NCBI GenBank assembly: GCA_018818105.1 | Contig: JAHISK010000056.1 | Span: 1 to 35,756, forward strand | Length of the DNA stretch: 35,756 bases | From: Candidatus Omnitrophota bacterium | Lineage (GTDB): Bacteria; Omnitrophota; Gorgyraeia; Duberdicusellales; 4484-171 | Reading direction: 5' to 3' | Part shown: one piece after another, positions 3,874-31,971 of the stretch | How positions within the stretch are numbered: position 1 is the first letter of the stretch | How the letters are laid out: each line of letters starts with the position of its first letter | The notes under the pieces: model-generated | Database searches by the model: none | What the model was told of the DNA's origin: nothing | The model's input: only the letters and a program-made list of their open reading frames with translations | Position numbers and translations under genes: made by a program

Positions 3874-3905
3874 AAGGGTCAAGGGTCAAGGGGCAAGGGT
3901 CAAGG
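3874..3905. repeat. Heptanucleotide tandem repeat (aagggtc)n
   Basis: aagggtc|aagggtc|aaggggc|aagggtc|aagg read directly. Confidence 0.9.
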
Positions 3906-3972
3906 AAGAGAAGAAGAAAAAGATGTGGGGCGAGGGAGCAGGGAAGGCAAGGATAGATTATTTTTCATTAAT

Positions 3973-5214
3973 ATGGATATAAATGATGTTAATAGAGTAT
4001 GTGTCGTTGGGTGGGGTAAGAGTGGTCGTTCTTTATGTAAGTTGCTTCTAGAATTAGGTAAAAAGGTTAAAATTAGTGAGATAAAGGAAAGAAGCGCGTT
4101 TAGCACCGCGGTAATAGATGAATTTATAGATAAAGGAGTAGAATTTGAGTTCGGTGGCAACAGCGATAAGTTTATAAAAGAATCGCAGTTAGTAGTTTTA
4201 AGTCCCGGTGTAGATACCGCTAATTCGGACGCTTGCAAAATAGCTAAAACTTATGATATAGATGTTGTTGGAGAAATTGAGCTTTCTTTTTGGTTGACAC
4301 AGGCGCAAGTAATTGCTATCACTGGAACTAATGGAAAAACTACTACGTCCCAGCTTACGCGGCAGGTGCTTAAGAAAAAAAGGAAAAGAGTTTTTTTAGG
4401 AGGAAATATTGGGATTCCATTTTCCTCTTTTGTGTTAGAAACTAAAAAAGATGATTTGGTTGTTTTAGAGATTAGTTCTTTTCAGCTAGAAACTATTAGG
4501 GAGTTTAAGCCTCATGTTTCAGCGTTACTTAATATTGCTTCTGATCATCTTGACCGGTATGTGAATTTTTCGGATTATTTCGACGCGAAGATGAATATAT
4601 TTATGAATCAGGATAAAAATGACTGGGCGTTAATTAATAATAAGCTGGATTTAAATGGGATTAAGGATAGGGTTAATTCTAAAGTTCTCCGGTTTTCCAA
4701 TGAGTTTTCTAATGAAAACTTTTCGTGCGCGTACAAAATCGGCAGTATCTTTGGTGTAAGTAGAGAAGAATGTGATGATGTTTTTAGGTCGTTTAAGGGG
4801 TTAGCTCACCGGATGCAGTTTGTAAGGCGCCTGCGGCAGATAGATTTCATCAATGATTCTAAAGCTACAAATCCTACTTCAACTGTTTGGGCTCTTAGTA
4901 ATGTGACGTCTTCTGTGTTGCTCATTGCCGGAGGTAAAGATAAAGGATTGGATTTTTCAGAGATTATTCCTCATTTAGATAAGGTGAAAAAAGTGTTTCT
5001 TTTTGGAGAAGCCTCGGTAAAAATTAAAAATGAAATCAGCCCGTATGTTAAAACCGAAGTTTTTACTTCGTTAAGAGATAGTGTGAATAAGTCTTTTCAG
5101 GAGGCTACGGCTTCTGATGTCATTCTTTTATCTCCGATGTGTTCAAGTTATGATATGTTCACTGATTATGTTGATAGAGGGAATAGATTCATTGAAATAG
5201 TAAATAATCTTTAG
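3973..5214 (+). CDS. murD: UDP-N-acetylmuramoylalanine--D-glutamate ligase (MurD)
   Basis: VVGWGKSGRSL, ITGTNGKTTTSQL, NDSKATNPTSTVWAL, LLIAGGKDKGLDF motifs; start set at MDINDVN instead of the ORF-track 3925 start, which lies downstream of the heptad repeat. Confidence 0.94.
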   Translation: MDINDVNRVCVVGWGKSGRSLCKLLLELGKKVKISEIKERSAFSTAVIDEFIDKGVEFEFGGNSDKFIKESQLVVLSPGVDTANSDACKIAKTYDIDVVGEIELSFWLTQAQVIAITGTNGKTTTSQLTRQVLKKKRKRVFLGGNIGIPFSSFVLETKKDDLVVLEISSFQLETIREFKPHVSALLNIASDHLDRYVNFSDYFDAKMNIFMNQDKNDWALINNKLDLNGIKDRVNSKVLRFSNEFSNENFSCAYKIGSIFGVSREECDDVFRSFKGLAHRMQFVRRLRQIDFINDSKATNPTSTVWALSNVTSSVLLIAGGKDKGLDFSEIIPHLDKVKKVFLFGEASVKIKNEISPYVKTEVFTSLRDSVNKSFQEATASDVILLSPMCSSYDMFTDYVDRGNRFIEIVNNL

Positions 5215-5240
5215 CGCATAGCGTATAGCGGATAGAGTAA
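5213..5240. repeat. Heptanucleotide tandem repeat (agcgNat)n overlapping the murD stop codon
   Basis: agcgcat|agcgtat|agcggat|agagtaa. Confidence 0.8.
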
Positions 5241-5260
5241 ATAGATAATAAAATTATTGA

Positions 5261-6364
5261 ATGAAAGTAATAAAAAAAGAACGAAAACTTATTTTTATGG
5301 CTATAGTGGCATTAACGTTGTTTGGAACATTAATGGTGTATGAGTCTTCTAGTTTATATGCCTATAAAAATTTAGCCGATGCGTCCTATTTTTTTAAAAA
5401 ACAGTTTATTTTTTTTCTTGTTGGGTTAAGTGTTTTTTTTTCAATGTTATTTTTGGATTTAGAGTTATTAAGAAAGCATAATAAAGAGTTTTTAATTTCT
5501 ATTATTTTTTTTCTTATCCTAATTATTTTTATTGGTAAAAAAGTGGGTGGTTCAAAAAGATGGTTTTATTTTCTCGGTTTTAATTTTCAGCCTTCGGAAT
5601 TGCTTAAAGTTGCTTTTCTGTTATACTGCGCTGATTATTTCAGTCGTAAAGATGGCCTAATTAAAAATTTTAAGGCGGGCTTGGTGCCTTTGGGCATTGT
5701 CTTGGGAGGAATTTGTATATTGTTGTTGTTGCAGCCCGATTTGGGAACGGCGCTTTTTTTAGTGATGTGGACATTTATTTATTTGTTTCTTTATGGCGCG
5801 AAACGTAAACATTTGGTTTTAATTATTGTTTTTGGGGTAATCGCGTCGTTTTTTCTTATAAAGTTTTATCCTTATCGATTTAAAAGAATACTTGCTTATT
5901 GTGATCCTTTCGCTGACCCTCAAGGGGCAGGGTTTCAGTCGATCCAGTCTCAAATTGCTTATGGTGAAGGAGGTATTTTCGGTGTAGGATTTGGGTCAAG
6001 TTGTCAAAAACTGTTTTTTCTTCCCGCGGCGCATACCGATTTTATTTTCTCTATTATTGCTGAGGAGTTTGGTTTATGGGGAGCATTATTAGTTCTTTAT
6101 GTTTTTTTTGTTATCCTATATAAGATGGGAAGTATTGCTGTTGGTATGGAGAATCGTTTTAAGCGAGGAATTTTGTGGGGAGTAGTTTTTATTTTTTCGT
6201 TGGAAGTGGTAATAAATGTTGGAGTCAGTTGTGGTTTATTGCCGATAACAGGTTTGCCTTTACCCTTTATAAGTTATGGTGGAAGTAATTTGATATCACA
6301 TTATATCCTTTTAGGATTGTTTTTTAACGCGTCACGTGGAGAAGAAGTAAGATGCAAGAAGTAA
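5261..6364 (+). CDS. ftsW: Peptidoglycan glycosyltransferase FtsW (SEDS family)
   Basis: LLQPDLGTALFL, FGVGFGSSCQKLFFLPAAHTDFIFSIIAEEFG, TGLPLPFISYGGSNLI SEDS motifs. Confidence 0.94.
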   Translation: MKVIKKERKLIFMAIVALTLFGTLMVYESSSLYAYKNLADASYFFKKQFIFFLVGLSVFFSMLFLDLELLRKHNKEFLISIIFFLILIIFIGKKVGGSKRWFYFLGFNFQPSELLKVAFLLYCADYFSRKDGLIKNFKAGLVPLGIVLGGICILLLLQPDLGTALFLVMWTFIYLFLYGAKRKHLVLIIVFGVIASFFLIKFYPYRFKRILAYCDPFADPQGAGFQSIQSQIAYGEGGIFGVGFGSSCQKLFFLPAAHTDFIFSIIAEEFGLWGALLVLYVFFVILYKMGSIAVGMENRFKRGILWGVVFIFSLEVVINVGVSCGLLPITGLPLPFISYGGSNLISHYILLGLFFNASRGEEVRCKK

Positions 6365-6390
6365 GATGTAAGAAACATAATGTAAGAAGC
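6342..6390. repeat. Heptad repeat with 14-bp superperiod spanning the ftsW 3' end and murG 5' end
   Basis: aagaagt|aagatgc|aagaagt|aagatgt|aagaaac|ataatgt|aagaagc; encodes EVRCKK in both overlapping proteins. Confidence 0.88.
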
Positions 6391-7443
6391 GGGAACAAGA
6401 CATTATTAGTATGTGAAAGAAGTGGTGGGCATGTGTTTCCCGCGGTTGCTTTAGGAGAGCAGTTGCGTAAACATCAAAAAGATGTTTATTTCTTTGTTAC
6501 CGCGGCGTCTTTAAAATCTTACCTGCAAGAAAAGGAGTTTAAAGTTTATGGTAGGAGCTTTTCTTATCGTAATATAGTGTTTGAAAGTATTTGGCGCGCG
6601 GTAGAAGCGGTATGGATTCTTTTGGCTATAAGACCGAAACAAGTTATTGGTTTTGGCGGGAGAGACAGCTTTTTTTTGGTTTTGTTTAGCGCGATAGTAA
6701 GGTTGGATACGGCTATCTATGAGCCTAATATTATTTTTGGCAGAGCAAATAAAGTTCTTTCTTTTTTTGTCCGTAAAGTTTTATGCGGATTTTCTTCGAT
6801 AGAGGTTTCTCGATACAAAGGAAGTAGGGGGGGGGAAAATAAGGTTAAGGTTGTTGGGATACCGTTGAGGGATAATATTAAGATAATTAATAAAGATGAG
6901 GCCCGTAAAGCTTTAGGGTTTGACGCTAAACCGGTTATTTTATGTTTCGGAGGTAGTCAGGGAGCTTCTTTTATAAATAAGAGTTTTATTGCGTTTATTG
7001 AGGCTTCTAAATTAGATTATAATATAATCCATCTTACGGGTAAAAGAGATTACTTTCAAATTAGCCAATTATATAATAAAATAGATAAGAAAGCTTTTGT
7101 AAAGGATTTTTATTATTCAATGGAGACCCTTTACAGTGTTGCTGATTTAGTAATTTGTAGATCGGGAGCGTCTACTTTAGGTGAAATCGCGTATTATAAG
7201 TTACCATCGATTTTAATTCCTTATCCTAGCGGTGGCCGGCATCAGAGGAAAAATGCTTATTATTTTAGCCAAAGGCAGGCGGCGTATGTTTTTCTTCAAG
7301 AAAATTTTTCGTTTGATGAGTTTAAGCAAACGGTTGAAAGATTAATTCAGGATAGGCAATTAAGAAAGACGGTAAAGGATAATTTAGGGAAGATACGTTT
7401 AGGTGTTAAAGCGCGGGATTTTTATAACGATATTTGGTCCTAA
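6352..7443 (+). CDS. murG: UDP-N-acetylglucosamine--N-acetylmuramyl-(pentapeptide) pyrophosphoryl-undecaprenol GlcNAc transferase (MurG), divergent N-terminus
   Basis: SGGHVFPAVALGEQL, FGGSQGASFINKSF, GASTLGEIAYYKLPSILIPYP..HQRKNA; dcw position; true start may lie downstream of 6352. Confidence 0.88.
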   Translation: MQEVRCKKHNVRSGNKTLLVCERSGGHVFPAVALGEQLRKHQKDVYFFVTAASLKSYLQEKEFKVYGRSFSYRNIVFESIWRAVEAVWILLAIRPKQVIGFGGRDSFFLVLFSAIVRLDTAIYEPNIIFGRANKVLSFFVRKVLCGFSSIEVSRYKGSRGGENKVKVVGIPLRDNIKIINKDEARKALGFDAKPVILCFGGSQGASFINKSFIAFIEASKLDYNIIHLTGKRDYFQISQLYNKIDKKAFVKDFYYSMETLYSVADLVICRSGASTLGEIAYYKLPSILIPYPSGGRHQRKNAYYFSQRQAAYVFLQENFSFDEFKQTVERLIQDRQLRKTVKDNLGKIRLGVKARDFYNDIWS

Positions 7444-7536
7444 TCGAAAGGTTTTTTATTTGACCTTCTAAATATTAGGAGAGGCAATTAGTAACTGTTA
7501 AGGAATAAACTTTCGCTCGTTATTAGGTGTTTAAGT

Positions 7537-8334: not shown

Positions 8335-9713
8335 AAAATATATATCTTATAGGTATTGGCGGTGTAGGGATGAGCGGGTTAGCTCATCTTCTTAAAGATA
8401 AAGGGTTTAATGTCAGCGGATCTGATATTGGTGTTTCACCGTATCTAGAAATGATTCAGGAAAAAGGAATTAAAGTATCTATCGGTCATAGAACAGAGAA
8501 CATAACTGACGATATAAATCTTATAGGGTATTCTTCGGCAATAAAAGAAGATAATCCTGAAATTATAGAAGCTAGGAGACGCGATATCACAGTATTAAAG
8601 CGAGCTGAATTATTGGGGCTTCTTTCTTGGGACAAAAAAATAATTGCTGTGGCCGGCAGCCATGGTAAAACCACAACAACGTCTTTAATCGGATACTTAT
8701 TAACATCTTTGGGCTATCAGCCTGCTATGTTTGTTGGTGGGCTTCCTTTAAACTTTTTACAAAATGCTTGGTGGGGCAAAGACTATTTTGTTATAGAAAC
8801 CGATGAAAGCGATGGTAGTTTTTTATATTATAGTCCATGGGTTTCAATAATCACTAATATTGATTATGAACATTTAGATTACTATAAAACAATTGGCAGT
8901 TTACGGGATAGCTTTTTGAAATTTGCGTATCAGACAAAGGAGAAAGTGTTTGGGTGGGAAGGAGATCCTTTTGTTCGGGAAATTCTTTCGCAGGTGGGGG
9001 GCGAGAGTTTTGGGTTGGGTGAAAATAGTAAAGTTAGAGCTGAGAATTTTAGAGTCGGGGCAGCTAGGAGTGAGTTTGATTTATATATAGATGATGAATT
9101 TATTACACCAGTAAGTACTCATTTGTTGGGAGAAAACAACGTTGCTAATGTTTTAGCTGCTTTCAGCCTTTTTCATTATATTGGTGAAGATTTAGAAAGG
9201 GTTAGCAGTATGCTTGAAAATTTTAAGGGAACTAAACGGCGGTTTCAGATAAAAGCGCGTCTAGGCGGTGTAGTATTTGTGGATGATTATGCTCATCATC
9301 CTACGGAAATTAAGTCTGTAGTGAGGGCCGCAAGATATTTGAATCCTAAACGACTAGTTGTTATTTGCCAGCCGCATCGGTTTTCTCGTTTAAAGTTGCT
9401 TTATGAAGAGTTTTCCCGTTGTTTTGATTCAGTAGATGAACTTATAATAACGGATATTTATTCTGCTTCTGAAAAAGAAAATTATAATATGAGCATAGAT
9501 GCGCTTAAGGATAAGATATCGAAAAATTTTGACGGGAGAGTGAGATATATTCCTTCATCGATGTTAGCGCGCCAAGTTCCGTATTTTTTAAAAGAAGGAG
9601 ATCTATGTTTAGGGATAGGGGCAGGTGACATCAATGTGTTAATGGAGGGTGTTATTGAGGAGTTTAAAAGGATAAGAGAGGCAGATGGAATTAAAATAAA
9701 CAATATACAATAA
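8310..9713 (+). CDS. murC: UDP-N-acetylmuramate--L-alanine ligase (MurC)
   Basis: GIGGVGMSGLAHLLKDKGFNVSGSD, VAGSHGKTTTTSLIG, DDYAHHPTEIKSVVRAAR motifs. Confidence 0.95.
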   Translation: MEKILSGVKNIYLIGIGGVGMSGLAHLLKDKGFNVSGSDIGVSPYLEMIQEKGIKVSIGHRTENITDDINLIGYSSAIKEDNPEIIEARRRDITVLKRAELLGLLSWDKKIIAVAGSHGKTTTTSLIGYLLTSLGYQPAMFVGGLPLNFLQNAWWGKDYFVIETDESDGSFLYYSPWVSIITNIDYEHLDYYKTIGSLRDSFLKFAYQTKEKVFGWEGDPFVREILSQVGGESFGLGENSKVRAENFRVGAARSEFDLYIDDEFITPVSTHLLGENNVANVLAAFSLFHYIGEDLERVSSMLENFKGTKRRFQIKARLGGVVFVDDYAHHPTEIKSVVRAARYLNPKRLVVICQPHRFSRLKLLYEEFSRCFDSVDELIITDIYSASEKENYNMSIDALKDKISKNFDGRVRYIPSSMLARQVPYFLKEGDLCLGIGAGDINVLMEGVIEEFKRIREADGIKINNIQ

Positions 9714-9855
9714 ATAAATTACAAACAAATAACAATAAACAAATGAAGAAAAAAGATAAAAAGATTTATAAATTCATAATATTCTCGTTAGTGTATTGTA
9801 TATTCGGTATTGTGTATTGTTTGTAATTTGGGTTTTGTCTATTGTTTATTTTTGA
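9693..9855. repeat. Long AC/GT-rich inverted repeat with 7-bp periodicity (murC-murB)
   Basis: Left arm aataaac|aatatac|aataaat|aaattac|aaacaaa|taacaat|aaacaaa; right arm gtgtatt|gtatatt|cggtatt|gtgtatt|gtttgta...; arms imperfectly complementary. Confidence 0.8.
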
Positions 9856-9884
9856 CAGAAGTAAAAGCTAGTAAGGAGGTGAGT

Positions 9885-10754
9885 ATGGTTGTTGTTGAAG
9901 ATACTCAGCGTTTAATTGTTAAGAGAGTCGTTAAATTAAAAGATTATACCTCTATCAAAATAGGTGGCAGAGTTAGCCGATTTTTTATTGTCAACACAGA
10001 ACAGGATTTGTCTAAACTGGTTAAGGAAACCGGCGGATTGTTTTATCTTTTAGGAAAGGGATCAAATATTTTAGCTTCGGATGAGCGGCTAAGTAAGCCG
10101 GTAATAAAATTGGGAGAAGAATTTGATTATATAAAAAGAGATTTTTCCTTAGTTGAGGTTGGCGCGGCTACTTCATTTTTGAAGTTGGTTAAATACGCGG
10201 TTGAAAATGAGTTAGAAGGGGTGGAAAATTTAGTAGGCATTCCGGCTAGTGTAGGTGGTATGGTGTGTATGAATGCTTCTTCCTTTGGACGAGAAATTTC
10301 TTCTGTGGTAGAAAGGGTTAGATGTATGGACAAGGAAGGAAGCATTAGTATTGTGGAAAAAGATGAGATGAAGTTTGCTTATAGGAAGTCATCATTCGCG
10401 AATCGTATTATTTTAAGTGTTTGGTTTAAGTTTGAAAATGGCTTCAATTTAAAGGAGAAAGCTAAAAATTTTTTAAAGGAAAGGCGTATTAGGGGAGATT
10501 ACGATTATCCTAGTTGTGGGTGCGTTTTTAAGAATCTTCCTGGCGGCGTTTTTAGCGGAGCGTTAATTGAAGGATGTGGGTTAAAGGGCGTTAGAAAAAA
10601 CAACGCGGCAGTTTCCGAAAGACATGCTAATTTTATTGTTAATTTGGGCGGCGCGGGATTTAAGGATGTAGAGTGTTTGATTAAAATGATTAAAGAAAAG
10701 GTTCATGAAAAATACAACGTTGTTTTAGAAGAAGAAATTCATAGATGGACGTAA
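9885..10754 (+). CDS. murB: UDP-N-acetylenolpyruvoylglucosamine reductase (MurB)
   Basis: FYLLGKGSNIL, LVGIPASVGGMVCMNASSFGREI, SCGCVFKN, ALIEGCGLKG, SERHANFIVNLG; start at 9885 after aaggaggtgag SD rather than 9810. Confidence 0.94.
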   Translation: MVVVEDTQRLIVKRVVKLKDYTSIKIGGRVSRFFIVNTEQDLSKLVKETGGLFYLLGKGSNILASDERLSKPVIKLGEEFDYIKRDFSLVEVGAATSFLKLVKYAVENELEGVENLVGIPASVGGMVCMNASSFGREISSVVERVRCMDKEGSISIVEKDEMKFAYRKSSFANRIILSVWFKFENGFNLKEKAKNFLKERRIRGDYDYPSCGCVFKNLPGGVFSGALIEGCGLKGVRKNNAAVSERHANFIVNLGGAGFKDVECLIKMIKEKVHEKYNVVLEEEIHRWT

Positions 10755-10756
10755 GA

Positions 10757-10920
10757 AAATTTAAAATGAAAATTACAAATTCCAAGCACCAAATAACAAA
10801 TAATTTCCAAATTCAAATTACCAAATGACCAAAACATCAATGTTTTTATATCGTTTGTAATTTTGGTTATTGAATATTGGGATTTATTTGTAATTTGGAA
10901 ATTGTTATTTGGAATTTAAG
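10757..10920. repeat. Long AC/GT-rich inverted repeat with approximate 7-bp periodicity (murB-ddl)
   Basis: Left arm ...ccaaataacaaataatttccaaattcaaattaccaaatgacc; right arm tggttat|tgaatat|tgggatt|tatttgt|aatttgg|aaattgt|tatttgg|aattta. Confidence 0.8.
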
Positions 10921-10965
10921 TAAACTTTTCACAATGCCTGAGTAAAGCGTGAGTAATATAAATAT

Positions 10966-12688: not shown

Positions 12689-12705
12689 AATATTATATGC
12701 ACTCC

Positions 12706-12726
12706 CAACTATGAACTACGAACTAT
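12706..12726. repeat. Heptad tandem repeat immediately 5' of the ftsA-like ATG
   Basis: caactat|gaactac|gaactat. Confidence 0.75.
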
Positions 12727-12727
12727 T

Positions 12728-13900
12728 ATGAAAGGGATTTGTGGGATAGATATAGATAGGGATAATGTTTTTATTTCTTTCGCGGCGGTAAACCGGGGAC
12801 GAATTAATTTTTTAAAGGAGATAGAAGTTGGGGCTATTTGTGATGATGGGTTTTTGGATTATTTTAAAAAAAACTCTGAAAGATTAAATAAGTCAATAAT
12901 GGTTGAGGAAAAAAGATTATCGATTAAGGTAGATGATGTTTTCCTCAATTTACCGAGACAGTTAGAAAAAAAACGGGTAGTTGAGGATGTCGTGCCTTTT
13001 AAAAAAAGGAAAAAAATTAATCCTCCCGATTTGATTATGGCTAAGAAACATATTGCCGATATATTTTTAGATTGGGATGATTTTTGTATCCACAATTTTG
13101 TTTTAGGTTGTGAGATAGAAGGCAAACTCTATCCAACTTTGCCGATAGGAGTTCCCGCGAAAAAAATAAAACTAAAATCTTTGTTAGTATGGGTTAAAGA
13201 TAAATTGCATAGGGAGGTAGAAGATATTTTTGATAATGTAGATAGAAGGTTTGGCGGATTTGTTTCTTCTGATGCCAGTAGTTTTACCGCTTCTTTTCCT
13301 GAAGGATATATAAGGAAAAATGACAAAGATATTTTCTGTGTGATTAACATTGGCTATGATAATAGTCATTTTGTTGTTTGTAGGGCTGGCGCGCTTGAGT
13401 TTGGAAAGGAATTTGATTTTGGCTCGAAGAAAATCATTGCGGCGATAGAGAAAAGGTTTCTGCTTTCTCCGGTATTAGCAAACGAGGTTTTCGCGAGGTA
13501 TATTTCTTTTAAAAATGTACCTTATTATAAGGAAATAAGCATTAAAAAATCAAACACCTATACAAATTTAAGTACGCAAGCGGTAAATTCATTTGTTAGG
13601 GAATATATAAAAGGAGAAGTTAATTTTATGCTGGAAAAGATAAAACAGAAAGTGGGAATAGAGAGCTTTATCCTTTCTTTTGTGGGTAGGTTGAATGCTA
13701 AGGAAGGTTTTTATAGTTTTCTTAAAGATTTTATTCCTTATCAGGTAAAAGTTTTTTCTCCCACAGGGCATAATAAAAGTGTATCTTCTTCTTTTGGTTG
13801 TTTGAAATATGGGATGCATCGTTTTTTAGAGTTGGAATATTGTAGAAAACAAGAGTCTTTTTGGGAAAGGTTTTTAAAGGTTTATAAAGAGTATTTCTAG
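12728..13900 (+). CDS. Divergent FtsA-like actin-fold protein
   Basis: N-terminal KGICGIDIDRDNVFISFAAV strand and VINIGYDNSHFVVCRAGAL phosphate-2-like strand; follows ftsQ; ATP-binding signature residues not canonical. Confidence 0.6.
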   Translation: MKGICGIDIDRDNVFISFAAVNRGRINFLKEIEVGAICDDGFLDYFKKNSERLNKSIMVEEKRLSIKVDDVFLNLPRQLEKKRVVEDVVPFKKRKKINPPDLIMAKKHIADIFLDWDDFCIHNFVLGCEIEGKLYPTLPIGVPAKKIKLKSLLVWVKDKLHREVEDIFDNVDRRFGGFVSSDASSFTASFPEGYIRKNDKDIFCVINIGYDNSHFVVCRAGALEFGKEFDFGSKKIIAAIEKRFLLSPVLANEVFARYISFKNVPYYKEISIKKSNTYTNLSTQAVNSFVREYIKGEVNFMLEKIKQKVGIESFILSFVGRLNAKEGFYSFLKDFIPYQVKVFSPTGHNKSVSSSFGCLKYGMHRFLELEYCRKQESFWERFLKVYKEYF

Positions 13901-13956
13901 GGGGGGTGCTAAATTATATTTACCCCGTAGAGTAATTGTGATATATTCAATTAATT

Positions 13957-14008
13957 GGCGCTGTCGTATAATATCATCAGAGCCTGATTTCACTGATTAA
14001 AGACTAAT
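13957..14008. repeat. Dispersed intergenic motif copy 1 (ggcgctgtcgNatNataNcatcag ... attaaagac)
   Basis: Resembles 25353-25396. Confidence 0.45.
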
Positions 14009-14105
14009 ATTATCAATCAATGTTATCAAGATTTAATCTGAGTAGGACAGTTTTAGGCGGCATCGTTAGTTTTATCACCTAGACAACTTAGGAAAGGAGG
14101 CAGGG

Positions 14106-16937: not shown

Positions 16938-17082
16938 AGAGATATTAATTGAAATTAGCTCGCTTACGCTTGCGAGATTGATAGAAATTTATTGAGTATG
17001 AATCTTTAAACAGATAGTTTTTTAGTTGCAACTAATTTCTATGAATTTCAATCAATTTCGCGAACGTAGTGAGCAAATCTCT
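16938..17082. repeat. Nested imperfect palindromic element
   Basis: agagat...attgatagaaatt / aatttctatgaatttcaatcaattt...atctct, with ttagttgcaactaa perfect palindrome at 17022-17035. Confidence 0.7.
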
Positions 17083-17101
17083 ATCAACGTCTATTATATA
17101 T

Positions 17102-17968
17102 ATGTATTATCTTTTTGTTTTGGGTAAAATAGTTTGTGTTACTTGCCCTCGATGCTTATGCTATTTTTTCGCGAAAGTTGTTGCCACGGTTTATTTTTAT
17201 CTTTCTAAAAAGGACAGAGAATCAGTTAAGTATAATATAGCTCCCCTTGTAAAGGCAGAAGAACTAAACTTTTACGCGCGGAAGGTGTTTATTAATTTCG
17301 CATATTATCTAGTGGATTTTTTTAGGTATTCAAAGCTAGATCAAAATTTTATTAGAAAATATGTAAAAGTAGAAGGTGCCCATTTTCTTGAGGAAAGTTT
17401 GGCTAAGAAAAAAGGTGTTATTTCTCTTAGCGCTCATTTAGGTAATTATGAGTTAGGCGGCGCGGTAGGCGCTCTCCTAGGATATCCCATATATGCTGTT
17501 ACCTTACCGCATAAAGATAAACGGACAAATGATTTTTTTAATCAGCAACGGCGCAGAGTCGGTATGGGGGTTATTTCTACAGGGGTTAGAGTGAAACAGT
17601 GTTTTTCTATTTTGAGACAGGGTAATATGATTGCTTTTCTTGGTGATAAAGATTTTAGCGGTAACGCCGGAGTAAAAACTGAGATGTGTTCTAAAATAGC
17701 AAATATACCTAGAGGCGCGTTCTATTTTGCGATGAAAACAGGTGCGACCATCGTGCCCACTTTCTTTGTTCGGGAAAACAAGAAGTTTTACCGTTTTATT
17801 TTTGAGAAACCCATTTGGGAAAGTTCTGATAGAAAGAAATCTGTACCTGAGGATGTTCAACTAGCGGCAATAATAAAAAATTATGTTACTGTAGTAGAGA
17901 GGTATTTAAGCAATTACCCTGATCAGTGGTATATGTTTGAAAAATATTGGGTCAAAGCTGATAGCTGA
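17102..17968 (+). CDS. Lysophospholipid/lipid A acyltransferase (LpxL/HtrB family)
   Basis: ISLSAHLGNYELGG, NMIAFLGDKDF, PRGAFYFAMKTGATIVPTFFVRE, YPDQWYMFEKYW; start moved from 17069, where ORF-track residues fall in the palindromic repeat. Confidence 0.87.
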   Translation: MYYLFVLGKIVCVTCPRCLCYFFAKVVATVYFYLSKKDRESVKYNIAPLVKAEELNFYARKVFINFAYYLVDFFRYSKLDQNFIRKYVKVEGAHFLEESLAKKKGVISLSAHLGNYELGGAVGALLGYPIYAVTLPHKDKRTNDFFNQQRRRVGMGVISTGVRVKQCFSILRQGNMIAFLGDKDFSGNAGVKTEMCSKIANIPRGAFYFAMKTGATIVPTFFVRENKKFYRFIFEKPIWESSDRKKSVPEDVQLAAIIKNYVTVVERYLSNYPDQWYMFEKYWVKADS

Positions 17969-17983
17969 TAGCAGAAAGTTGAA
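17956..17983. repeat. Heptad tandem repeat overlapping the acyltransferase stop
   Basis: agctgat|agctgat|agcagaa|agttgaa. Confidence 0.72.
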
Positions 17984-19279: not shown

Positions 19280-19314
19280 CTAACTTATAACTTAAAACAT
19301 ATAACCTAAAACTA
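19280..19314. repeat. Heptad repeat with 14-bp superperiod
   Basis: ctaactt|ataactt|aaaacat|ataacct|aaaacta. Confidence 0.72.
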
Positions 19315-19321: not shown

Positions 19322-19849
19322 ATGGTGCATTTTTATATAGGCGACGGTAAAGGTAAAACTACGGCGGCTTTTGGTTTGGCTCTACGAGCGGCAGGGTTTA
19401 AGAAGAACGTGTATATTAGCCAGTTTTTAAAAGGTAAAGATGCTGTTAGTGGAGAGGTTGAGTTTATTAGAGGGGTGAAGTCATCTATTTCGGTTGAACG
19501 GTTTAGCGGACAGGTTCACCCAATGTTTTTGAAAAAAGGCAAGAAGTTTGACTTGAAAAAAATGAAAGCATCAACGTTTCAAGCTTTATTAAAAATAGAA
19601 AAATATATTGATGAAGGAAAGTTTGATGTAATAGTTTTAGATGAAATTCTTAATTCAGTTAGAGGTAAAGTTTGTTCAAAGGCTATTTTAAAACGGCTGA
19701 TAAAAAAAAGTAAGGGCATAGAGTTTATTTTAACAGGCAGAACTGCGTCGGATGATTTAATTAAGTTAGCTGATTACGTGAGTTGTATTAATAAAGTAAA
19801 ACATCCTTTTGATAAAGGAATTTTAGCCCGCCAAGGGATAGAATATTAG
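19322..19849 (+). CDS. cobO: Cob(I)yrinic acid a,c-diamide adenosyltransferase-like (CobO/BtuR)
   Basis: GDGKGKTTAAFGLALRAAGF, FLKGK, VIVLDEILNSV, LTGR. Confidence 0.88.
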   Translation: MVHFYIGDGKGKTTAAFGLALRAAGFKKNVYISQFLKGKDAVSGEVEFIRGVKSSISVERFSGQVHPMFLKKGKKFDLKKMKASTFQALLKIEKYIDEGKFDVIVLDEILNSVRGKVCSKAILKRLIKKSKGIEFILTGRTASDDLIKLADYVSCINKVKHPFDKGILARQGIEY

Positions 19850-19908
19850 TAATGTATGGGAATTTATGGTTTTTTTCTTGCAAAGGGGTGAATAAAGAGA
19901 TAATAATT

Positions 19909-20040
19909 GTAGGGGCGTCGCTTGTCTGCGCCCGATTATTAATTATGATTAGACCATAAATATGATTTAGCATAATGATATGGTCATCCAATTGTTGATG
20001 ATTTTATATTATTACGGGCGTAGACAAGCGACGCCCCTAC
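19909..20040. repeat. GTAGGG-type REP/MITE-like inverted-repeat element
   Basis: GTAGGGGCGTCGCTTGTCTGCGCCCG (19909-19934) / CGGGCGTAGACAAGCGACGCCCCTAC (20015-20040), 25/26 complementary. Confidence 0.92.
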
Positions 20041-20094
20041 GTAATTCTTTAAAACCAAATTTATTTTTTTCTAAACACTATACTCTTATAATTT

Positions 20095-20925: not shown

Positions 20926-21006
20926 TAGGGTTCAGGCCTGCCTGAACCGTTTAAAAAATTATAATATAATAATTAAATTAGAGGTACGGGCGGGCCCGTA
21001 CCCTAC
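20925..21006. repeat. GTAGGG-type element with two different palindromic end modules
   Basis: GTAGGGTTCAGGCCTGCCTGAACC + AT spacer + GGTACGGGCGGGCCCGTACCCTAC. Confidence 0.88.
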
Positions 21007-21011
21007 AGACT

Positions 21012-22481
21012 ATGTCAGAGAATAAAATAAAAAAAATATCTTTAGTTCAGAGAAAGACTACTTTTAAAGAGGTTTCCTTAGGATTTAGTAAAAGCCAAGC
21101 TTTAGTTGAAGCAAAAAGATGTCTTCAGTGTAAGAATTCGCCTTGTGTAAGAGCGTGTCCAGTTAACATTGATATCAAAGAATTTATACGGCGGATAGTT
21201 AATAAAGAGTATAGTGGGGCGTTAAATAAAATAAGAGAGAAAAACAATCTGGGCGCGGTTTGCGGGAGAGTTTGTCCTCAGGAAGAGCTTTGTCAGCGTG
21301 GTTGCGTATTAAATAAAACTAAGAACCCTATAAAAATAGGGTATTTAGAACGCTTCGCCGCCGACTATGGCGGTAGAAACGAAGGACGAAGAACGAAGGA
21401 CGAAGAACGAAGGATGAAAGACGATAAAGAAAATATCTTTTGTCGCTCGTCTTTCGTCCGAGCGAGTGAAACGAGCAGTCGTCCTTCATGCTTCGGTTTA
21501 AAGTATAAACAGAAGGTGGCTGTGGTAGGAAGCGGTCCCGCAGGGTTAGTATGCGCCGGTGAATTGGTAAAGAAAGGATTTTCAGTTGAGATATTTGAGG
21601 CTTTGCATAAACCGGGAGGCGTATTAGTGTATGGGATACCGCAGTTTCGGTTGCCGAAAAATATTATCGATAACGAAGTAAGCTATATAAAAAGTTTAGG
21701 CGTAAAAGTTCATGCTAATTTTTTTGTTGGGAAAACAAAAACTATAACTCAGTTAAGAGGAGATGGATTTAGCGCTTTTTTTATTGGGGTTGGTGCTGGC
21801 GCGCCGTTATTTTTAAATATTGAGGGAGAGAATTTAAATGGTGTTTATTCTGCTAACGAGTTTCTCACTCGTATAAATCTTATGAAAGCGTATCTTTTTC
21901 CGAAGTATCATACGCCGGTTAATGTGGGTAAGCGGGTAGGTGTTATTGGTGCCGGCAATGTGGCGTTTGATTGCGCGCGCAGCGCGTTACGGTTGGGGGC
22001 GAAGGAAGTTTTTATTATATACAGGCGTACGCGTAAAGAAGTTCCCGCTAGAGAAGAAGTAGTAGAGAATGCTAAAGAAGAAGGCATTGAATTTAAATTT
22101 CTTACCGCGCCGGTTCAAATTATATCTGATGGCAAGGGCAATGTAGTAGGGGCGGTATGTATTAAAAATAAGCTTGGTTTTGTAGATTCTTCGGGAAGAA
22201 AGTCGCCTGTTCCTATAGAAGGGTCTGAATTCAGAATTAATTTAGATACAATAGTTTTTGCTATAGGGACAAGTGCTAACCCGCTTTTTATACAGACTGT
22301 TAAGGGATTAGTTCTGACTAAACGGGGATATATAGAGGTTGATGATAATTTTCAGACGTCTATCCCGGAAATCTTTGCCGGAGGTGATATTGTTAGCGGA
22401 TCAGCAACTGTTATTAGCGCTATACAACAAGGGAAAGTCGCTGCAGTCAGCATAGAAAAATATCTGAAAAAGGAGAGTTGA
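21012..22481 (+). CDS. nfnB: NfnB / NADPH-dependent glutamate synthase small-subunit-like FAD/FeS oxidoreductase
   Basis: CLQCKNSPCVRACPVNIDI, VCGRVCPQEELCQRGC, VVGSGPAGL, GIPQFRLPK, GAGNVAFDCARSALRLGA, IFAGGDIV. Confidence 0.92.
   Translation: MSENKIKKISLVQRKTTFKEVSLGFSKSQALVEAKRCLQCKNSPCVRACPVNIDIKEFIRRIVNKEYSGALNKIREKNNLGAVCGRVCPQEELCQRGCVLNKTKNPIKIGYLERFAADYGGRNEGRRTKDEERRMKDDKENIFCRSSFVRASETSSRPSCFGLKYKQKVAVVGSGPAGLVCAGELVKKGFSVEIFEALHKPGGVLVYGIPQFRLPKNIIDNEVSYIKSLGVKVHANFFVGKTKTITQLRGDGFSAFFIGVGAGAPLFLNIEGENLNGVYSANEFLTRINLMKAYLFPKYHTPVNVGKRVGVIGAGNVAFDCARSALRLGAKEVFIIYRRTRKEVPAREEVVENAKEEGIEFKFLTAPVQIISDGKGNVVGAVCIKNKLGFVDSSGRKSPVPIEGSEFRINLDTIVFAIGTSANPLFIQTVKGLVLTKRGYIEVDDNFQTSIPEIFAGGDIVSGSATVISAIQQGKVAAVSIEKYLKKES
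21376..21424. repeat. In-frame coding heptad repeat inside nfnB, start of a longer inverted repeat (to about 21496)
   Basis: gaaacga|aggacga|agaacga|aggacga|agaacga|aggatga|aagacga. Confidence 0.9.
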
Positions 22482-23927: not shown

Positions 23928-23959
23928 ATAACGCACAGGATTCAGCGAAGAGGAGAGTT

Positions 23960-24664: not shown

Positions 24665-24700
24665 TAAACCGCGATAAAATAACCAAGTTTTAGGCGTTAA

Positions 24701-24842
24701 AGATACAATAATCAAGAAAAAAGATACAAATAAATTCCAATGACCAAGAAACAATAACAAATGAATTTTTGTTTTTAATCATCTTTTTGATTATTGATAT
24801 TGGTGATTGGTTATTATTTGGTTAAAGTCTTTTGTATCTTGG
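24701..24842. repeat. Long AC/GT-rich inverted repeat with 7-bp periodicity
   Basis: tccaatg|accaaga|aacaata|acaaatg ... tgattat|tgatatt|ggtgatt|ggttatt|atttggt; ends aagatacaaa / tttgtatctt. Confidence 0.72.
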
Positions 24843-24907
24843 AGATTATTAGAATTGGTAATTAAACTTTTGATAATGTTTTTTAAGGATTATAAAGGAG
24901 TTAAGTA

Positions 24908-25345: not shown

Positions 25346-25352
25346 AGATTAT

Positions 25353-25396
25353 GGCGCTGTCGAATGATAACATCAGCATCTAATTAAAGACTGTCG
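25353..25396. repeat. Dispersed intergenic motif copy 2 (cf. 13957-14008)
   Basis: ggcgctgtcgaatgataacatcag...attaaagactgtcg. Confidence 0.45.
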
Positions 25397-25416
25397 TATC
25401 TTGCGACAGTTTTTTT
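25390..25416 (+). terminator. Rho-independent terminator
   Basis: actgtcg-tatcttg-cgacagt followed by T-tract. Confidence 0.88.
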
Positions 25417-25463
25417 ATCCATATGTTAGGATATCTAATCTTATTATTTATGGTAGTTCCGCT

Positions 25464-27635: not shown

Positions 27636-27720
27636 AGGGACTTTGTATTAAAATTCAACAGATTTATAGTGAGTTAACAGATTGAGTCGAATGTTGATTT
27701 CGGTACTGGTAGAATAAAAT

Positions 27721-28917
27721 ATGGATAAAGTAAAAAAGATTTTAATCATATCTTCGGATAAATCTTTAAAAGACGTCTTGAATTTTTGCTTTGACGGGTG
27801 GGGGTATGAAGTGTTCTTATGTGATTCTCCCGTGCATGATATAACTCCTATCAAAAAAATTGCTCCTGATGTTATTGTCGCCGACGTTTACTCAGCCGAC
27901 CGAAATCAGCTTCATATATGTCAGCTACTCAAAGATGATTTTACTACATCGTTTATACCGGTGATTACGCTAATAAATAAAAGACAGTTACGTTCTCATT
28001 TGCTGAACCTTAAACAGGGGGTTGATGATTATTTAATAAAACCTCCCGATCCGCTTGATTTAAGGGTTAGAGTAGAGATGGCGATAAAAAGGTCTCAGTA
28101 TAGTTTTTATGCTACGCCGTTAACAGGGTTACCGGGAGCAAGGTTAATTGAAGATGTGGTTAATGAAAAAGTTAAAAAGAACATACCATTTGCTTTTGGG
28201 TACATTGATATCGATAGTTTTAAGTATTTTAACGATGTTTACGGGTATTTAAAAGGTGATCGCGTGATTATGCAGGCGGCTTATATTCTTTATAAGACCA
28301 TAAAAAAATTGAGTAATACGGATGATTTTATTGGGCACATTGGCGGCGATGATTTTGTGTTTGTGACTACGCCCCAGAAAGCGCAAGAAATATGCCAGAA
28401 ATTTATACTTATGTTTGATAGAATAATTCCCTTTCATTATAACAGTCAAGATAGAAAACAGGGTTTTATAATAGCTAGGGATAGGACGCATAAGTTAAAA
28501 AAACTTGATTTAATGAGTGTATCTGTAGCTGTTGTAATCAGGAATGACCCTACAGAGTTTAAAAATTTCATAGAAATAAATGAGCGTATTGTCGAGATTA
28601 AGCAGTACCTAAAAAATATAAGGGGTAGTAAATTTATGGCAGACCGCAGAAATGACGTAAAGCTTAAAGGTGTAGGTCCTCATATTTATAAAAAAGACGA
28701 AGAGTTTATAAACACGTATCGGCCGATAGGACAGCTTTTAGTTGATAGGAAGATTCTTTCTTCAGGACAGCTTGATGATATTTTGAAAGTGCATTGGCGC
28801 CGAGGCGTGATGCTGGGAGAGATATTAAAAGATCTTGGTTTTGTGAAGGAAGATCAGTTGGCTGAAGTATTAAATATTCAAAAAGGGTATTCAGATGATA
28901 AAGGTATTTTCGCGTAA
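27721..28917 (+). CDS. REC-GGDEF (GGDDF variant) protein with C-terminal MshEN-like module
   Basis: [14 protein letters not shown]...[47 protein letters not shown]-term [53 protein letters not shown]. Confidence 0.82.
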
Positions 28918-28961
28918 TAGTTAATTTACGGAAAAACGTTGATGTAGAAAGGAGCGTAGCA

Positions 28962-29513
28962 ATGAGAAAAAAATTTATATTAATAGTAAGTATACTGATA
29001 ATGTTAGGATGTGTCTGGCAAATGGGATTTTCTAAAGATAAAGATCAGATAGTGGTGTTAGAAACTAATCAAGGAGTAATAGAAATAAAGCTGAAACCGG
29101 AAATAGCGCCAAAAACATGTGAAAACTTTTTGGGGTTAATAAATAAAGAGTATTACAACGGGATTATATTTCATAGAGTAATAAAAAGCTTTATGGTTCA
29201 GGGCGGCGACCCTACAGGTACAGGTAGTGGGGGGGCTTCGCTTTGGGGGCAACCTTTTGAAGATGAAGTCGATAGTGCTATAACATTTGATAAACCGGGA
29301 ATTTTAGCTATGGCAAACGCCGGACCTAATACTAACGGTAGTCAGTTTTTTATTACAACTGTTCCAACTCCGTGGCTTAACGGTAAACACACTATTTTTG
29401 GTGAGGTTGTGGTAGGTTATGATGTTGTAACAAAGATTGAAAATGTGAAAACTGACCGTATGGCTAATAAACCAGTGATTGAACAGAAGATAATTAAGGC
29501 ATACGTTAAGTAG
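28962..29513 (+). CDS. Exported cyclophilin-type peptidyl-prolyl cis-trans isomerase
   Basis: Signal/lipobox-like [60 protein letters not shown]. Confidence 0.94.
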
Positions 29514-29552
29514 TATTTAGTGAAGAGAATATAGGGACTGGTATTTAGATTA
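29511..29552. repeat. Heptad repeat starting at the PPIase stop codon
   Basis: tagtatt|tagtgaa|gagaata|tagggac|tggtatt|tagatta. Confidence 0.75.
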
Positions 29553-29609
29553 GAGAGATATAAAAGACTGGGAAAATAATTAATAGTTATAACTATAATT
29601 GATATTTGT

Positions 29610-29707
29610 AGAGATTTATTGAAATTCATAGAAATTAATTGTTTGAAGATTAAAATACAATAAATTTCTATAAATTTCGCAAAGCGAATTTCTACTAATT
29701 TCTATAT
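29610..29707. repeat. Imperfect palindromic element related to 16938-17082
   Basis: agagatttattgaaattcatagaaatt / aataaatttctataaatttcgcaaagcgaatttct. Confidence 0.65.
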
Positions 29708-29711
29708 TTTT

Positions 29712-30074
29712 ATGTATATAAAAAAGTTCCAAGATTGTCAGCAATTTATCGCTGGAGATGATTCTATTCTTCGTGAGTATTTACATCCTGATAAAGAGGA
29801 TTTAAAAATTAATTATAGTTTAGCCCACGCCATTGTAAAGAGGGGGCAGGTAACAAAACCGCATAAACTAAAAACGAGTGAAGTTTATTATATTCTAGAA
29901 GGAAAGGGTCTCATGCATATTGATGGAGAGGCTTGGCAGGTTGGTCCGATGGATGTAGTTTATATTCCTCCTTTCGCTGTGCAGTATATTGAGAATATAG
30001 GAGACCGCGATTTAAAGTTTCTTTGTATTGTTGATCCCGCCTGGAAATTAGAGGATGAACAGATAATATTGTAG
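29712..30074 (+). CDS. Small single-domain cupin protein
   Basis: KRGQVTKPHKLKTSEVYYILEGKGLMHIDGE...VYIPPFAVQYIENIGDRDLKFLCIVDPAW. Confidence 0.86.
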   Translation: MYIKKFQDCQQFIAGDDSILREYLHPDKEDLKINYSLAHAIVKRGQVTKPHKLKTSEVYYILEGKGLMHIDGEAWQVGPMDVVYIPPFAVQYIENIGDRDLKFLCIVDPAWKLEDEQIIL

Positions 30075-30164
30075 GGGCGTCGCTTGCCTACGCCCGTAAT
30101 AATATACAATTATCAATAATCGGATACAGACATTGTTCCAGGCGCAGGCAAGCGGCGCCTCTAC
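30071..30164. repeat. GTAGGG-type REP/MITE-like element; supplies the cupin stop codon
   Basis: GTAGGGGCGTCGCTTGCCTACGCCCG / ccaggcgcaggcaagcggcgcctctac, near-identical arm to 19909-19934. Confidence 0.9.
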
Positions 30165-30191
30165 GATATTTCAATATTTATAACGTCAATA

Positions 30192-31946
30192 ATGTACGGT
30201 TGGACAGGCAAAATACTTCACATAAATCTTACCGAAAAAAAATACACGGTCGAAAATCCTTCCATAGATGTATACAAAAAATATATTGGTGGTAGAGGTT
30301 TAGCGGGGTACTATCTAGGAGATTTTATTAAAGAAGCATACGATGCTGCTGTTATGCCGCTATTATTTTTTACCGGCCCTTTAGTTGGCACTTCCTCGCC
30401 TACTTCAGGTAGAATGACTATAATGAGTAAGTCGCCGTTAACGGGAACAATTTGCGACAGTTCAGTTGGCGGCAGTTTAGGTGTACAGATAAAAAGGGCA
30501 GGCTTCGACGGTATTGTTATTACTGGAAGAGCAATGAGTCTTTGTGGGATACATATTTCTGATTCTCAAATAGAAATTGTTGACGCCCAATCGCTAAAGG
30601 GCAAAGAAGTTAGTTTCGCGATAAGTAGAGTTGGAGAGGAAGGTTCTGCGATTGCTGTAATCGGGCCGGCAGCGGAGAACGGGGTGTTGTTTTCCTGTAT
30701 AAGTGTTGACGGTCATTTTTTTTCAGGGCGCGGCGGATTAGGCTTAGGTTTCGCGTCAAAAAATTTAAAGTACGTTAAAGTTAAAGGTAGTACGAAAACG
30801 TTAGTCTATGATAAGAATGAGTTAGATTTAGCAAGAGAAGAAATTTTTCGTCTTACATCGGCATCACCGATTTTAATGGGGGAGTTCGGCATTTCAAATT
30901 ATGGGACGTCGGCGTTATACGACCTTATGCATACTCGTAGGATGATGCCGACAAATAATTTTAAATCTACCTATTTTGAGGCGGCTCCTACCATGAACGC
31001 CTGGCAGTACGCTTTAAAGTATAAACCTAAGAAAAAAGGATGTTTTGGCTGTCACATATTATGTAAAAAGGAAGGTAAAGATAACACAATAATTCCTGAA
31101 TTTGAAACAATGTCTCATTTTAGCGCTCTATTAAATAACACCGAGATAGCGGCGGTAGTTAAATCGAATAACATATGTAATGAAACGGGAATGGACACAA
31201 TTTCTGCTGCGGGGACGCTTTCCTGTTACGCGGAAATCAATGAAATTACTCTTTTGCCGAAACAAATTAGTAAGTTACTCCTAGATATAGCCTATAACCG
31301 CCAGCAAGGTAGGCAGTTAAAGGTTGGGTCGCGGCGCTATGCCGAAAGTAAAGGTGTGCCGGACGTTTCAATAACAGTAAAAGGGCAAGAACTTCCCGCT
31401 TACGATCCAAGGGGTGCTTATGGTATGGCGTTGGCTTATGCTACATCAACCAGGGGAGGGTGTCATTTACGCGCGTATCCTATATCTCATGAAATTTTAC
31501 GAAAACCCGTGGCGACAGACCGCTTTACCTTTAGTGGGAAAGCGCGAATCATAAAAATAAGCGAAGATTTAAACGCGATAGTTGATTCCTTAACTGCCTG
31601 TAAATTTTTGTTTTTCGCGGTAAGTTTAGAAGAGTACTCTCGCGCTTTTTACGGCGTAACAGGAATAAAAGTGAGCGCGCAGGATTTACTTAAAACGGGA
31701 GAACGAATTTTTTATAATGAACGTATTTTTAACGCTGCTTGTGGGTTTAGCAGTAAAGATGATGATTTGCCTCGGCGGTTTTTCGAAGAGTCAGGGAGCA
31801 GTGGCCAGAGTATAACGGTAAATCCTATTAACCGGCAGGAATTCTTAACTGCCCGATCAGCGTACTATAAAATTCGGGGGTTGGATGAGGATGGCATGCC
31901 GAGAGAGGATAAGTGTAGAGAGTTGGGGATAGTGAATAGTATATAG
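30192..31946 (+). CDS. Aldehyde:ferredoxin oxidoreductase family (tungsten pterin enzyme)
   Basis: MYGWTGKILHINLTEKKY, GGRGLAGYYLG, GPLVGTSSPTSGRMTIMSKSPLTGTICDSSVGG, CFGCHILCKK, PEFETMSHF, GGCHLRAYPISHEI, DSLTACKF. Confidence 0.94.
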   Translation: MYGWTGKILHINLTEKKYTVENPSIDVYKKYIGGRGLAGYYLGDFIKEAYDAAVMPLLFFTGPLVGTSSPTSGRMTIMSKSPLTGTICDSSVGGSLGVQIKRAGFDGIVITGRAMSLCGIHISDSQIEIVDAQSLKGKEVSFAISRVGEEGSAIAVIGPAAENGVLFSCISVDGHFFSGRGGLGLGFASKNLKYVKVKGSTKTLVYDKNELDLAREEIFRLTSASPILMGEFGISNYGTSALYDLMHTRRMMPTNNFKSTYFEAAPTMNAWQYALKYKPKKKGCFGCHILCKKEGKDNTIIPEFETMSHFSALLNNTEIAAVVKSNNICNETGMDTISAAGTLSCYAEINEITLLPKQISKLLLDIAYNRQQGRQLKVGSRRYAESKGVPDVSITVKGQELPAYDPRGAYGMALAYATSTRGGCHLRAYPISHEILRKPVATDRFTFSGKARIIKISEDLNAIVDSLTACKFLFFAVSLEEYSRAFYGVTGIKVSAQDLLKTGERIFYNERIFNAACGFSSKDDDLPRRFFEESGSSGQSITVNPINRQEFLTARSAYYKIRGLDEDGMPREDKCRELGIVNSI

Positions 31947-31971
31947 TATTTAGTGAAGAGGATATATATAA
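31930..31971. repeat. Heptad repeat covering the AOR C-terminal codons and stop
   Basis: tagtgaa|tagtata|tagtatt|tagtgaa|gaggata|tatataa. Confidence 0.75.

What the first reader, a model, noticed from the sequence alone, without database searches (positions are those of the whole stretch)
3874..31971. Genome-wide style heptanucleotide (7-bp period) repeats, different sequence at each junction
At about 12 loci the DNA reads as back-to-back 7-mers: aagggtc (3874), agcgNat (5213), aagaagt/aagatgt (6342), aataaac-type (9695), CAAAT-type (10757), gaactac (12706), agctgat (17956), ataactt/aaaacat (19280), aggacga/agaacga (21376), caataac-type (24701), tagtatt/tagtgaa (29511, 31930). The period is conserved but the unit is not, and several loci show a 14-bp superperiod. 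A conserved spacing without conserved sequence points to a generating mechanism or a spacing-reading factor instead of a single transposed sequence. Heptameric STRR repeats are known from cyanobacteria, so the class has a precedent; the per-locus diversity and association with gene ends here look unusual.
Basis: partly seen in the sequence, partly recalled or inferred. Interest (0 to 1): 0.82.

Follow-up and report, generated by a model that had tools for sequence, protein, structure and literature searches.

The report
Heptamer arrays forming palindromic intergenic elements
This bacterial genome is sprinkled with short stretches in which a four-base word recurs every seven bases about five times, often as two mirror-image halves that could fold into a hairpin between neighbouring genes; it is an unusually dense and orderly case of the known but unexplained 7-base repeats of bacteria.

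Summary
In 284 kb of the genome, period-7 segments in intergenic DNA number 57, against 0.5 in shuffles; no other period from 2 to 13 comes near. "A different unit at each junction" is only partly right: 151 arrays use 80 words where about 130 are expected.

Three rules emerged. (1) Lengths cluster at 7n+4 bp, with n=4 the mode (32 bp): five near-invariant tetramers separated by freer trimers. (2) Neighbouring arrays are inverted partners, 17 inverted against 1 direct, and the pairs tested fold as hairpins. (3) Arrays are chiral: AG-type just after stop codons (41:2), CT-type just before starts (19:4). One complete element appears to lie in frame inside a gltD-like gene and is missing from 23 homologues.

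Best reading: dispersed palindromic elements with heptamer-built arms, plus single arms, copied between loci. The mechanism is inferred. Intergenic heptamer repeats are already known as the commonest intergenic tandem repeats in prokaryotes (PMC6344855). The new parts are the architecture, pairing and chirality. All three rules were found post hoc; replication in other genomes is small.

The parts
3874..3905 (+). AG-type single array, 32 bp: AAGGgtcAAGGgtcAAGGggcAAGGgtcAAGG, 8 bp after the stop of the mraY-like ORF 2783-3865
   Evidence: copies elsewhere in the genome, some sharing the non-periodic tail AAGAGAAGAA
5212..5235 (+). AG-type array TAGCGNA; its first TAG is the stop codon of the murD-like ORF 3925-5214
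   Evidence: TAGCGNA x3 found in 22 of 193 genomes of the phylum
6342..6374 (+). AG-type array AAGAagtAAGAtgc...AAGA, overlapping the stop of the ftsW-like ORF 5261-6364 and the called start of the murG-like ORF
9692..9853 (.). Palindromic element, arms ACAATAN-type and TTGTNTA-type, between the murC-like and murB-like ORFs
   Evidence: fold z -3.9
10756..10917 (.). Palindromic element, arms CAAATAA-type and ATTTGGA-type
   Evidence: fold z -4.3; homologous copies elsewhere
12696..12726 (+). CT-type array AACTATG/AACTACG ending 1 bp before the ATG at 12728
17956..17978 (+). AG-type array AGCTGAT overlapping the stop of the lipid A acyltransferase-like ORF 17069-17968
19281..19312 (+). CT-type array, 32 bp, TAACTTA words, 9 bp before the ATG at 19322
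21378..21424 (+). AG arm (ACGAAGG/ACGAAGA) of an element inside the gltD-like ORF 21012-22481
   Evidence: lies within a segment missing from 23 homologues
21436..21495 (+). CT-rich complementary arm(s) of the same intragenic element (TCTTTCGTCC, TCGTCCTTCATGCTTCG)
   Evidence: inverted repeats I1, I4, I5; fold z -3.2; similar element at L019:2526-2606
24690..24860 (.). Imperfect palindrome, CAATAAC-type and TTGGTTA-type arms
   Evidence: fold z -2.3
29511..29530 (+). Short TAGTATTTAGTGAAGAG stretch sharing its non-periodic tail with 31943-31960; AG-type, at the stop of ORF 28962-29513
   Evidence: intergenic sequences; not called by TRF
31929..31954 (+). AG-type array ATAGtgaATAGtatATAGtatTTAGT overlapping the stop of the aldehyde ferredoxin oxidoreductase-like ORF 30192-31946

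Best explanation
The arrays are arms of short dispersed palindromic elements, either complete (AG-type arm, loop, CT-type arm) or as a single remaining or unpaired arm. An arm is typically five copies of a tetramer at 7-nt steps (32 bp, 7n+4). Complete elements form hairpins in DNA or mRNA in which runs of paired bases alternate with mismatches at the variable positions. They multiply within the genome by copying to new places, by insertion and/or recombination between arms, and slipped-strand replication lengthens some of them. They persist where they do little harm, mainly just after a stop codon and between co-directional genes, and occasionally in frame inside a gene. Shown here: period, lengths, tetramer conservation, reuse of words, inverted pairing, chirality, gene-end placement, one intragenic case missing from homologues. 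Inferred: that they move as units, that single arms derive from complete elements, and that the hairpin is what is kept. The agent that makes or moves them is unknown.
For: Inverted-related neighbours 17 vs 1 direct, 0.13 expected per random pair; 55 of 136 arrays have an inverted partner of at least 70% identity within 300 bp, 12 a direct one, 12 reach that level in shuffles. Folds: L199 z -6.7, L010 -7.0, L011 -5.3, window elements -3.9, -4.3, -2.3, -3.2. Homology between loci extends beyond the array in 61 of 114 noncoding arrays and is confined to the array in 41. Chirality: AG..CT 18, CT..AG 4; AG after stops 41:2 (p 3e-6 against the local base-composition control), CT before starts 19:4. 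In-frame segment of about 29 aa in the gltD-like protein missing from 23 homologues and resembling L019:2526-2606 (78% over 81 bp, E 9e-13). The same syntax, lengths and placement for TAGCGNA in other genera.
Against: No target-site duplication, empty site or mobilising enzyme was shown; no same-genus genome was found among the relatives searched, so recent movement cannot be seen. About 73 of 120 arrays between co-directional genes have no detectable partner, so 'single arm of a former pair' is inference. One family has the opposite chirality (CTAAA...TTTAG, L011 and L018). Slippage clearly acts at some loci (L019:11366-11505 is a run of about 20 copies). The length, tetramer and orientation rules were noticed in the same data in which they were counted. 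The linker that holds the intragenic element is length-variable among homologues.
Confidence: 0.5

Rival explanations
1. Plain microsatellites: slipped-strand replication with a preferred 7-nt step (perhaps the length of duplex held by the polymerase) expands chance heptamers in DNA that is free to vary; all else is drift.
For: Identity between units falls with distance (0.84 at lag 7 to 0.72 at lag 35), as stepwise duplication predicts; long perfect runs exist; period 7 dominates in unrelated phyla. This is the mechanism proposed in the literature as reported in PMC4679880 and PMC4692102.
Against: Length mode at n=4 rather than falling with n; contiguous tetramer conserved and trimer free, unlike simulated uniformly mutated arrays (.84 .96 .96 .86 | .54 .71 .72 against a flat profile near 0.83); in GACYATN the free base is only weakly shared by adjacent units (108/224, 91.8+-5.9 expected); inverted pairing and chirality are not predicted.
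Confidence: 0.25
2. Binding array for a protein (DNA or mRNA) that reads a short word every 7 nt, five times; placement after stops or before starts reflects control of translation or mRNA ends, as suggested for TAACTGA in Beggiatoaceae.
For: Fixed size of about five words, conserved tetramer, fixed sense orientation near gene ends. In published data the TAACTGA repeat (CT-type) faces the start codon, and sets lying near the upstream ORF or after a stop in Cyanothece and F. litoralis are in reverse, i.e. AG-type (PMC4679880).
Against: Dozens of different words in one genome would need many readers or a reader of AG alone; arrays occur at genes of many kinds; paired arms that fold on themselves are not predicted.
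Confidence: 0.13
3. REP-like repeats moved by the RAYT (Y1) transposases that the genome encodes.
For: Seven Y1_Tnp matches in the genome; REP-like palindromes are present in the window (noticed in passing).
Against: Arms are heptamer arrays of many words rather than one conserved hairpin; the Planctomycetota genome G022, also heptamer-rich, has a single weak match; linkage of arrays to these genes was not tested.
Confidence: 0.07
4. The arrays supply stop codons in all three frames after genes (7 is coprime to 3), and are kept for that.
For: Single arrays carry more stop trinucleotides in sense than antisense (212 vs 129).
Against: Array-free sequence just after stops shows nearly the same ratio (1180 vs 800); closing several frames follows from the period itself.
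Confidence: 0.03

Closest known systems
Intergenic heptanucleotide SSR/LSSR of prokaryotes (Mrazek 2007 as cited in PMC4679880 and PMC4692102; SPADE survey PMC6344855)
   Same: Period 7 dominates, intergenic, many words, many phyla; function unknown.
   Different: The 7n+4 length with n=4, tetramer/trimer split and AG/CT chirality were not described in the passages read here.
GGGAATC repeats of Xanthomonas and GGGGA(C/T)T of Nostoc (PMC4692102)
   Same: Mostly intergenic, closer to the upstream ORF, preference for four units, 70-75 convergent (inverted) pairs per Xanthomonas genome, positions 1-4 and 6 of the unit conserved.
   Different: One G-rich word per genome, explained there by G-quadruplexes; here many words, most not G-rich, show a similar build, so quadruplexes cannot be the general reason.
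TAACTGA direct repeats of Beggiatoaceae, cyanobacteria and Bacteroidetes (PMC4679880)
   Same: Heptamer direct repeats at gene ends, with fixed orientation to the start codon and reversed when near the upstream ORF.
   Different: A single word, 2-6 copies, one inverted repeat only in the Maribeggiatoa genome; here inverted pairs are common.
Geobacter metallireducens elements with four or five tandem heptanucleotides (PMC2700814)
   Same: Dispersed families (49 copies of a four-heptamer element; 15 sites with five heptamers).
   Different: Few families, annotated there as putative regulatory elements.
Nostoc trnL intron P6b stem (PMC4476775)
   Same: Heptamer words build the two arms of a stem; different words serve the same stem; changes come in 7- or 14-nt steps.
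   Different: One locus inside a group I intron.
Rickettsia palindromic elements (from memory); REP and MITE elements (PMC3733652, PMC10969869, seen by title and abstract only)
   Same: Short palindromes dispersed in a genome; the rickettsial ones are known to sit in frame in genes.
   Different: No heptamer arrays are part of their definition; membership not met or not tested here.

Membership tests
Prokaryotic heptanucleotide tandem repeats (STRR/LSSR) | Tandem repeats of a 7-nt unit in excess of chance | tested here: met
   57 vs 0.5 expected in intergenic DNA
Prokaryotic heptanucleotide tandem repeats (STRR/LSSR) | Mainly intergenic | tested here: met
   57 in 45 kb of intergenic DNA, 14 in 239 kb called coding
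Prokaryotic heptanucleotide tandem repeats (STRR/LSSR) | Copy number varies in 7-nt steps between strains | not testable with these tools
   No genome of the same genus among the relatives given
REP elements | Conserved hairpin of 20-40 bp with a GTAG or CGTC tag at one end | not tested
   No tag was searched for; arms are heptamer arrays of many words
REP elements | RAYT (Y1) gene in the genome | tested here: met
   7 matches to PF01797; linkage to arrays not tested
MITE | Terminal inverted repeats flanking an internal part | tested here: met
   Arm-loop-arm units with homology ending near the outer array ends; holds for the paired arrays only
MITE | Target-site duplication and a matching transposase | not tested
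   No empty sites in close relatives available
G-quadruplex repeats of Xanthomonas/Nostoc | G-tracts in every unit | tested here: not met
   Most words have no G-tract, e.g. ACTANNN, AGTTNTA, TTGTNTA

The most novel reading that the evidence does not exclude
Intergenic heptamer repeats of bacteria in general are not microsatellites but arms of one class of chiral palindromic element with a fixed build (a 4-nt word every 7 nt, about five times; AG arm upstream, CT arm downstream), laid down by a dedicated templated or copying process that keeps the step and count but not the word.
Probability: 0.2. Interest if true: 0.85.

Novelty: new variant of a known kind. Interest (0 to 1): 0.56.

Why it matters
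Why prokaryotic genomes favour a 7-bp tandem period has stayed open; a survey of 7,006 genomes says there is no clear clue (PMC6344855). The rules found here (length 7n+4 with n=4, fixed tetramer with free trimer, inverted pairing, AG/CT chirality at gene ends) are simple, countable and separate slippage from element copying. If they hold in Xanthomonas, Nostoc, Geobacter and Beggiatoaceae, separate single-word stories would merge into one class of element. They also bear on gene calling, since arrays overlap stops and called starts and sometimes add in-frame linkers.

Tried and rejected
Stop-codon supply: rejected by the array-free control. Rho loading by YC dinucleotides: considered; the enriched sense dinucleotide near stops is AG, while GA is not enriched, so the complement is not YC-rich; not pursued. 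A shared word list across phyla: no excess for unrelated loci (5 vs 3.3); a modest excess with one Planctomycetota genome (9 vs 4.9, p 0.02), and TAGCGNA in 1 of 59 genomes of that phylum, so words are mostly lineage-bound while the period is not. Rfam: no family in the window. A GGGGATT-type query against plasmids found nothing and two cyanobacterial plasmid accessions were not held, so the rules could not be tested in cyanobacteria. A long ORF on contig 37 with several arrays was only looked at; a Pfam scan failed on frame. The gltD-like protein was a poor choice for fetching named relatives: hits came from many phyla.
Full report
WHAT WAS CHECKED. The window is contig 139 of a 2.03-Mb draft genome in 157 contigs. 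TRF finds 7- or 14-bp arrays at ten of the named places but not at 24701 or 29511. In the window's intergenic DNA lag 7 has the highest autocorrelation (z 6.4) and 7 long runs against 0.8 expected; coding DNA shows none. To avoid selection I took the first 20 kb of contigs 1-20 plus the window (284 kb): intergenic lag-7 segments were 57 against 0.5 in dinucleotide shuffles, 14 and 21 followed, and no other period from 2 to 13 exceeded 5. With contigs 21-60 added (668 kb) there were 151 arrays against 3 in a shuffle.

HOW WIDESPREAD. Seventeen relatives from other genera have fewer per base (0-19 per 100 kb; own 26), so density is patchy. Eighty loci from many phyla, fetched for an unrelated gene, also show period 7 as the commonest short period (45; the next, 9 and 12, are multiples of three), with mixed words. 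A Planctomycetota genome (G022) has 38 in 216 kb. Intergenic heptamer repeats are reported as the most abundant intergenic tandem DNA repeats in a survey of 7,006 prokaryotic genomes, with no clue to function (PMC6344855). The class is therefore known.

WORDS. 151 arrays fall into 80 word classes, against 130 (minimum 117) when letters are shuffled: words are reused. GACYATN three times over plus GAC occurs in 20 of 193 genomes of the phylum, in many copies in some (own 44, G204 64, G164 46, G016 32), while the reversed pattern is absent from most of these. TAGCGNA occurs in 22 of 193. Adjacent GACYATN units share the free base N only slightly more than chance (108/224, 91.8+-5.9 expected) and share Y slightly less (115, 126+-6.6 expected), which recent unit-by-unit slippage does not predict.

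BUILD. Array lengths in noncoding DNA peak at 32 bp (23 of 114; 31-33 bp 39), with 25 bp and 39 bp as minor modes: 7n+4 with n=4 the commonest. The peak stays when each word family is weighted equally. In 31-33-bp arrays the seven columns, counted from the array start, have mean identity .84 .96 .96 .86 | .54 .71 .72; simulated arrays with uniform mutation give a flat profile, and the neighbour correlation of column conservation is -0.002+-0.037 against about -0.17 in simulation. So an arm is best written as five tetramers with four freer trimers, e.g. AAGGgtcAAGGgtcAAGGggcAAGGgtcAAGG at 3874-3905. Loci of other genera with TAGCGNA show mostly 24-26 and 31-34 bp.

PAIRS. Of 25 pairs of arrays within 350 bp, 17 are inverted relatives and 1 direct; about 13% each is expected. 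By direct alignment 55 of 136 arrays have an inverted partner of at least 70% within 300 bp, 12 a direct one. L199:17600-17705, L010:15640-15750 and L011:14355-14435 fold with z -6.7, -7.0 and -5.3, with mismatches recurring about every seven bases; the single window arrays do not fold better than shuffles. Window elements at 9688-9860, 10750-10925 and 24690-24860 fold with z -3.9, -4.3 and -2.3. Homology between loci reaches at least 20 bp beyond the array in 61 of 114 arrays, typically across the loop to the other arm, and stays within the array in 41.

PLACE AND CHIRALITY. 44 of 96 arrays between co-directional genes start no more than 10 bp after the stop, 23 expected. Of arrays so placed (51 by the later count), 41 carry AG but not CT in the sense strand and 2 the reverse; array-free sequence after stops gives 65:35, against which p is 3e-6 (p 0.0007 leaving out arrays that overlap the stop). 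Arrays within 30 bp before a start are CT-type, 19 to 4. Pairs read AG..CT 18 times, CT..AG 4 times. Because a palindrome looks the same on both strands, an element of AG-loop-CT form between co-directional genes gives this placement by itself. Other genomes: after stops 10 AG to 3 CT in the relatives, G022 and other loci together, and AG 5 to CT 1 by my count among the TAGCGNA loci of other genera: same direction, small numbers. The published TAACTGA repeats (CT-type) face the start codon, and the sets near an upstream ORF or after a stop in Cyanothece and F. litoralis are reversed (PMC4679880).

AN INTRAGENIC CASE. The array at 21378-21424 lies in the gltD-like ORF 21012-22481, which has its expected domains. 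Aligned with 23 homologues the protein carries about 29 extra residues there. The DNA holds an AG arm and CT-rich complementary arms, folds with z -3.2, and resembles L019:2526-2606 (78% over 81 bp, E 9e-13). This is the best evidence that an arm-loop-arm unit can arrive in a new place; the linker is variable in length in other homologues, so it is not proof.

MECHANISM. Most likely (0.5): dispersed palindromic elements with heptamer arms, copied between loci and trimmed or lengthened by slippage. Slippage alone (0.25) explains the decay of identity with distance and the long perfect runs, but not the fixed length, tetramers, pairing and chirality. A word-reading protein (0.13) fits the fixed size and orientation but not the number of words. 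The agent and the reason for 7 remain unknown.

LIMITS. Genes were called mechanically (ORFs of 90-100 codons or more), so starts are uncertain. The 32-bp, tetramer and AG/CT rules were found while exploring this genome; only the small samples above are independent. The taxon was not named by the tools; gene content made me think of Omnitrophota, which is a guess. No strain pair was available.

Noticed in passing
window 19850-20094, 20926-21011, 30075-30191: Other intergenic palindromes of REP type, e.g. TGTAGGGGCGTCGCTTGTCTGCGCCCG...CGGGCGTAGACAAGCGACGCCCCTACG, without heptamers; three variants in this window.
   Followed up: no
window 35095-35260: Open stretch after a REP-like TGTAGGGACAGG... 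that reads like the start of a RAYT (Y1, REP-associated) transposase, probably a remnant; judged by eye. The genome has seven PF01797 matches.
   Followed up: partly
L205 (G000:C37):1-4975, minus strand: An open frame of over 1600 codons holding six heptamer arrays of different words in frame; possibly a giant surface protein.
   Followed up: partly
L017:7000-7250: Inverted AGTTNTA arrays lie on both sides of what looks by eye like a tRNA gene (GCGCCCGTAGCTCAG...), with a third array after it.
   Followed up: no
window 1213-1424, 16938-17068, 29514-29711, 31947-32181: Further long intergenic inverted repeats that are not period-7, including TAGAAATTCATAGAAATT-type ones at two places.
   Followed up: no
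window 13901-14105 and 25346-25400: Related GGCGCTGTCG(T/A)AT...ATCATCAGAGCC-like sequences before a response-regulator gene and a Na/H antiporter-EIIA gene.
   Followed up: no
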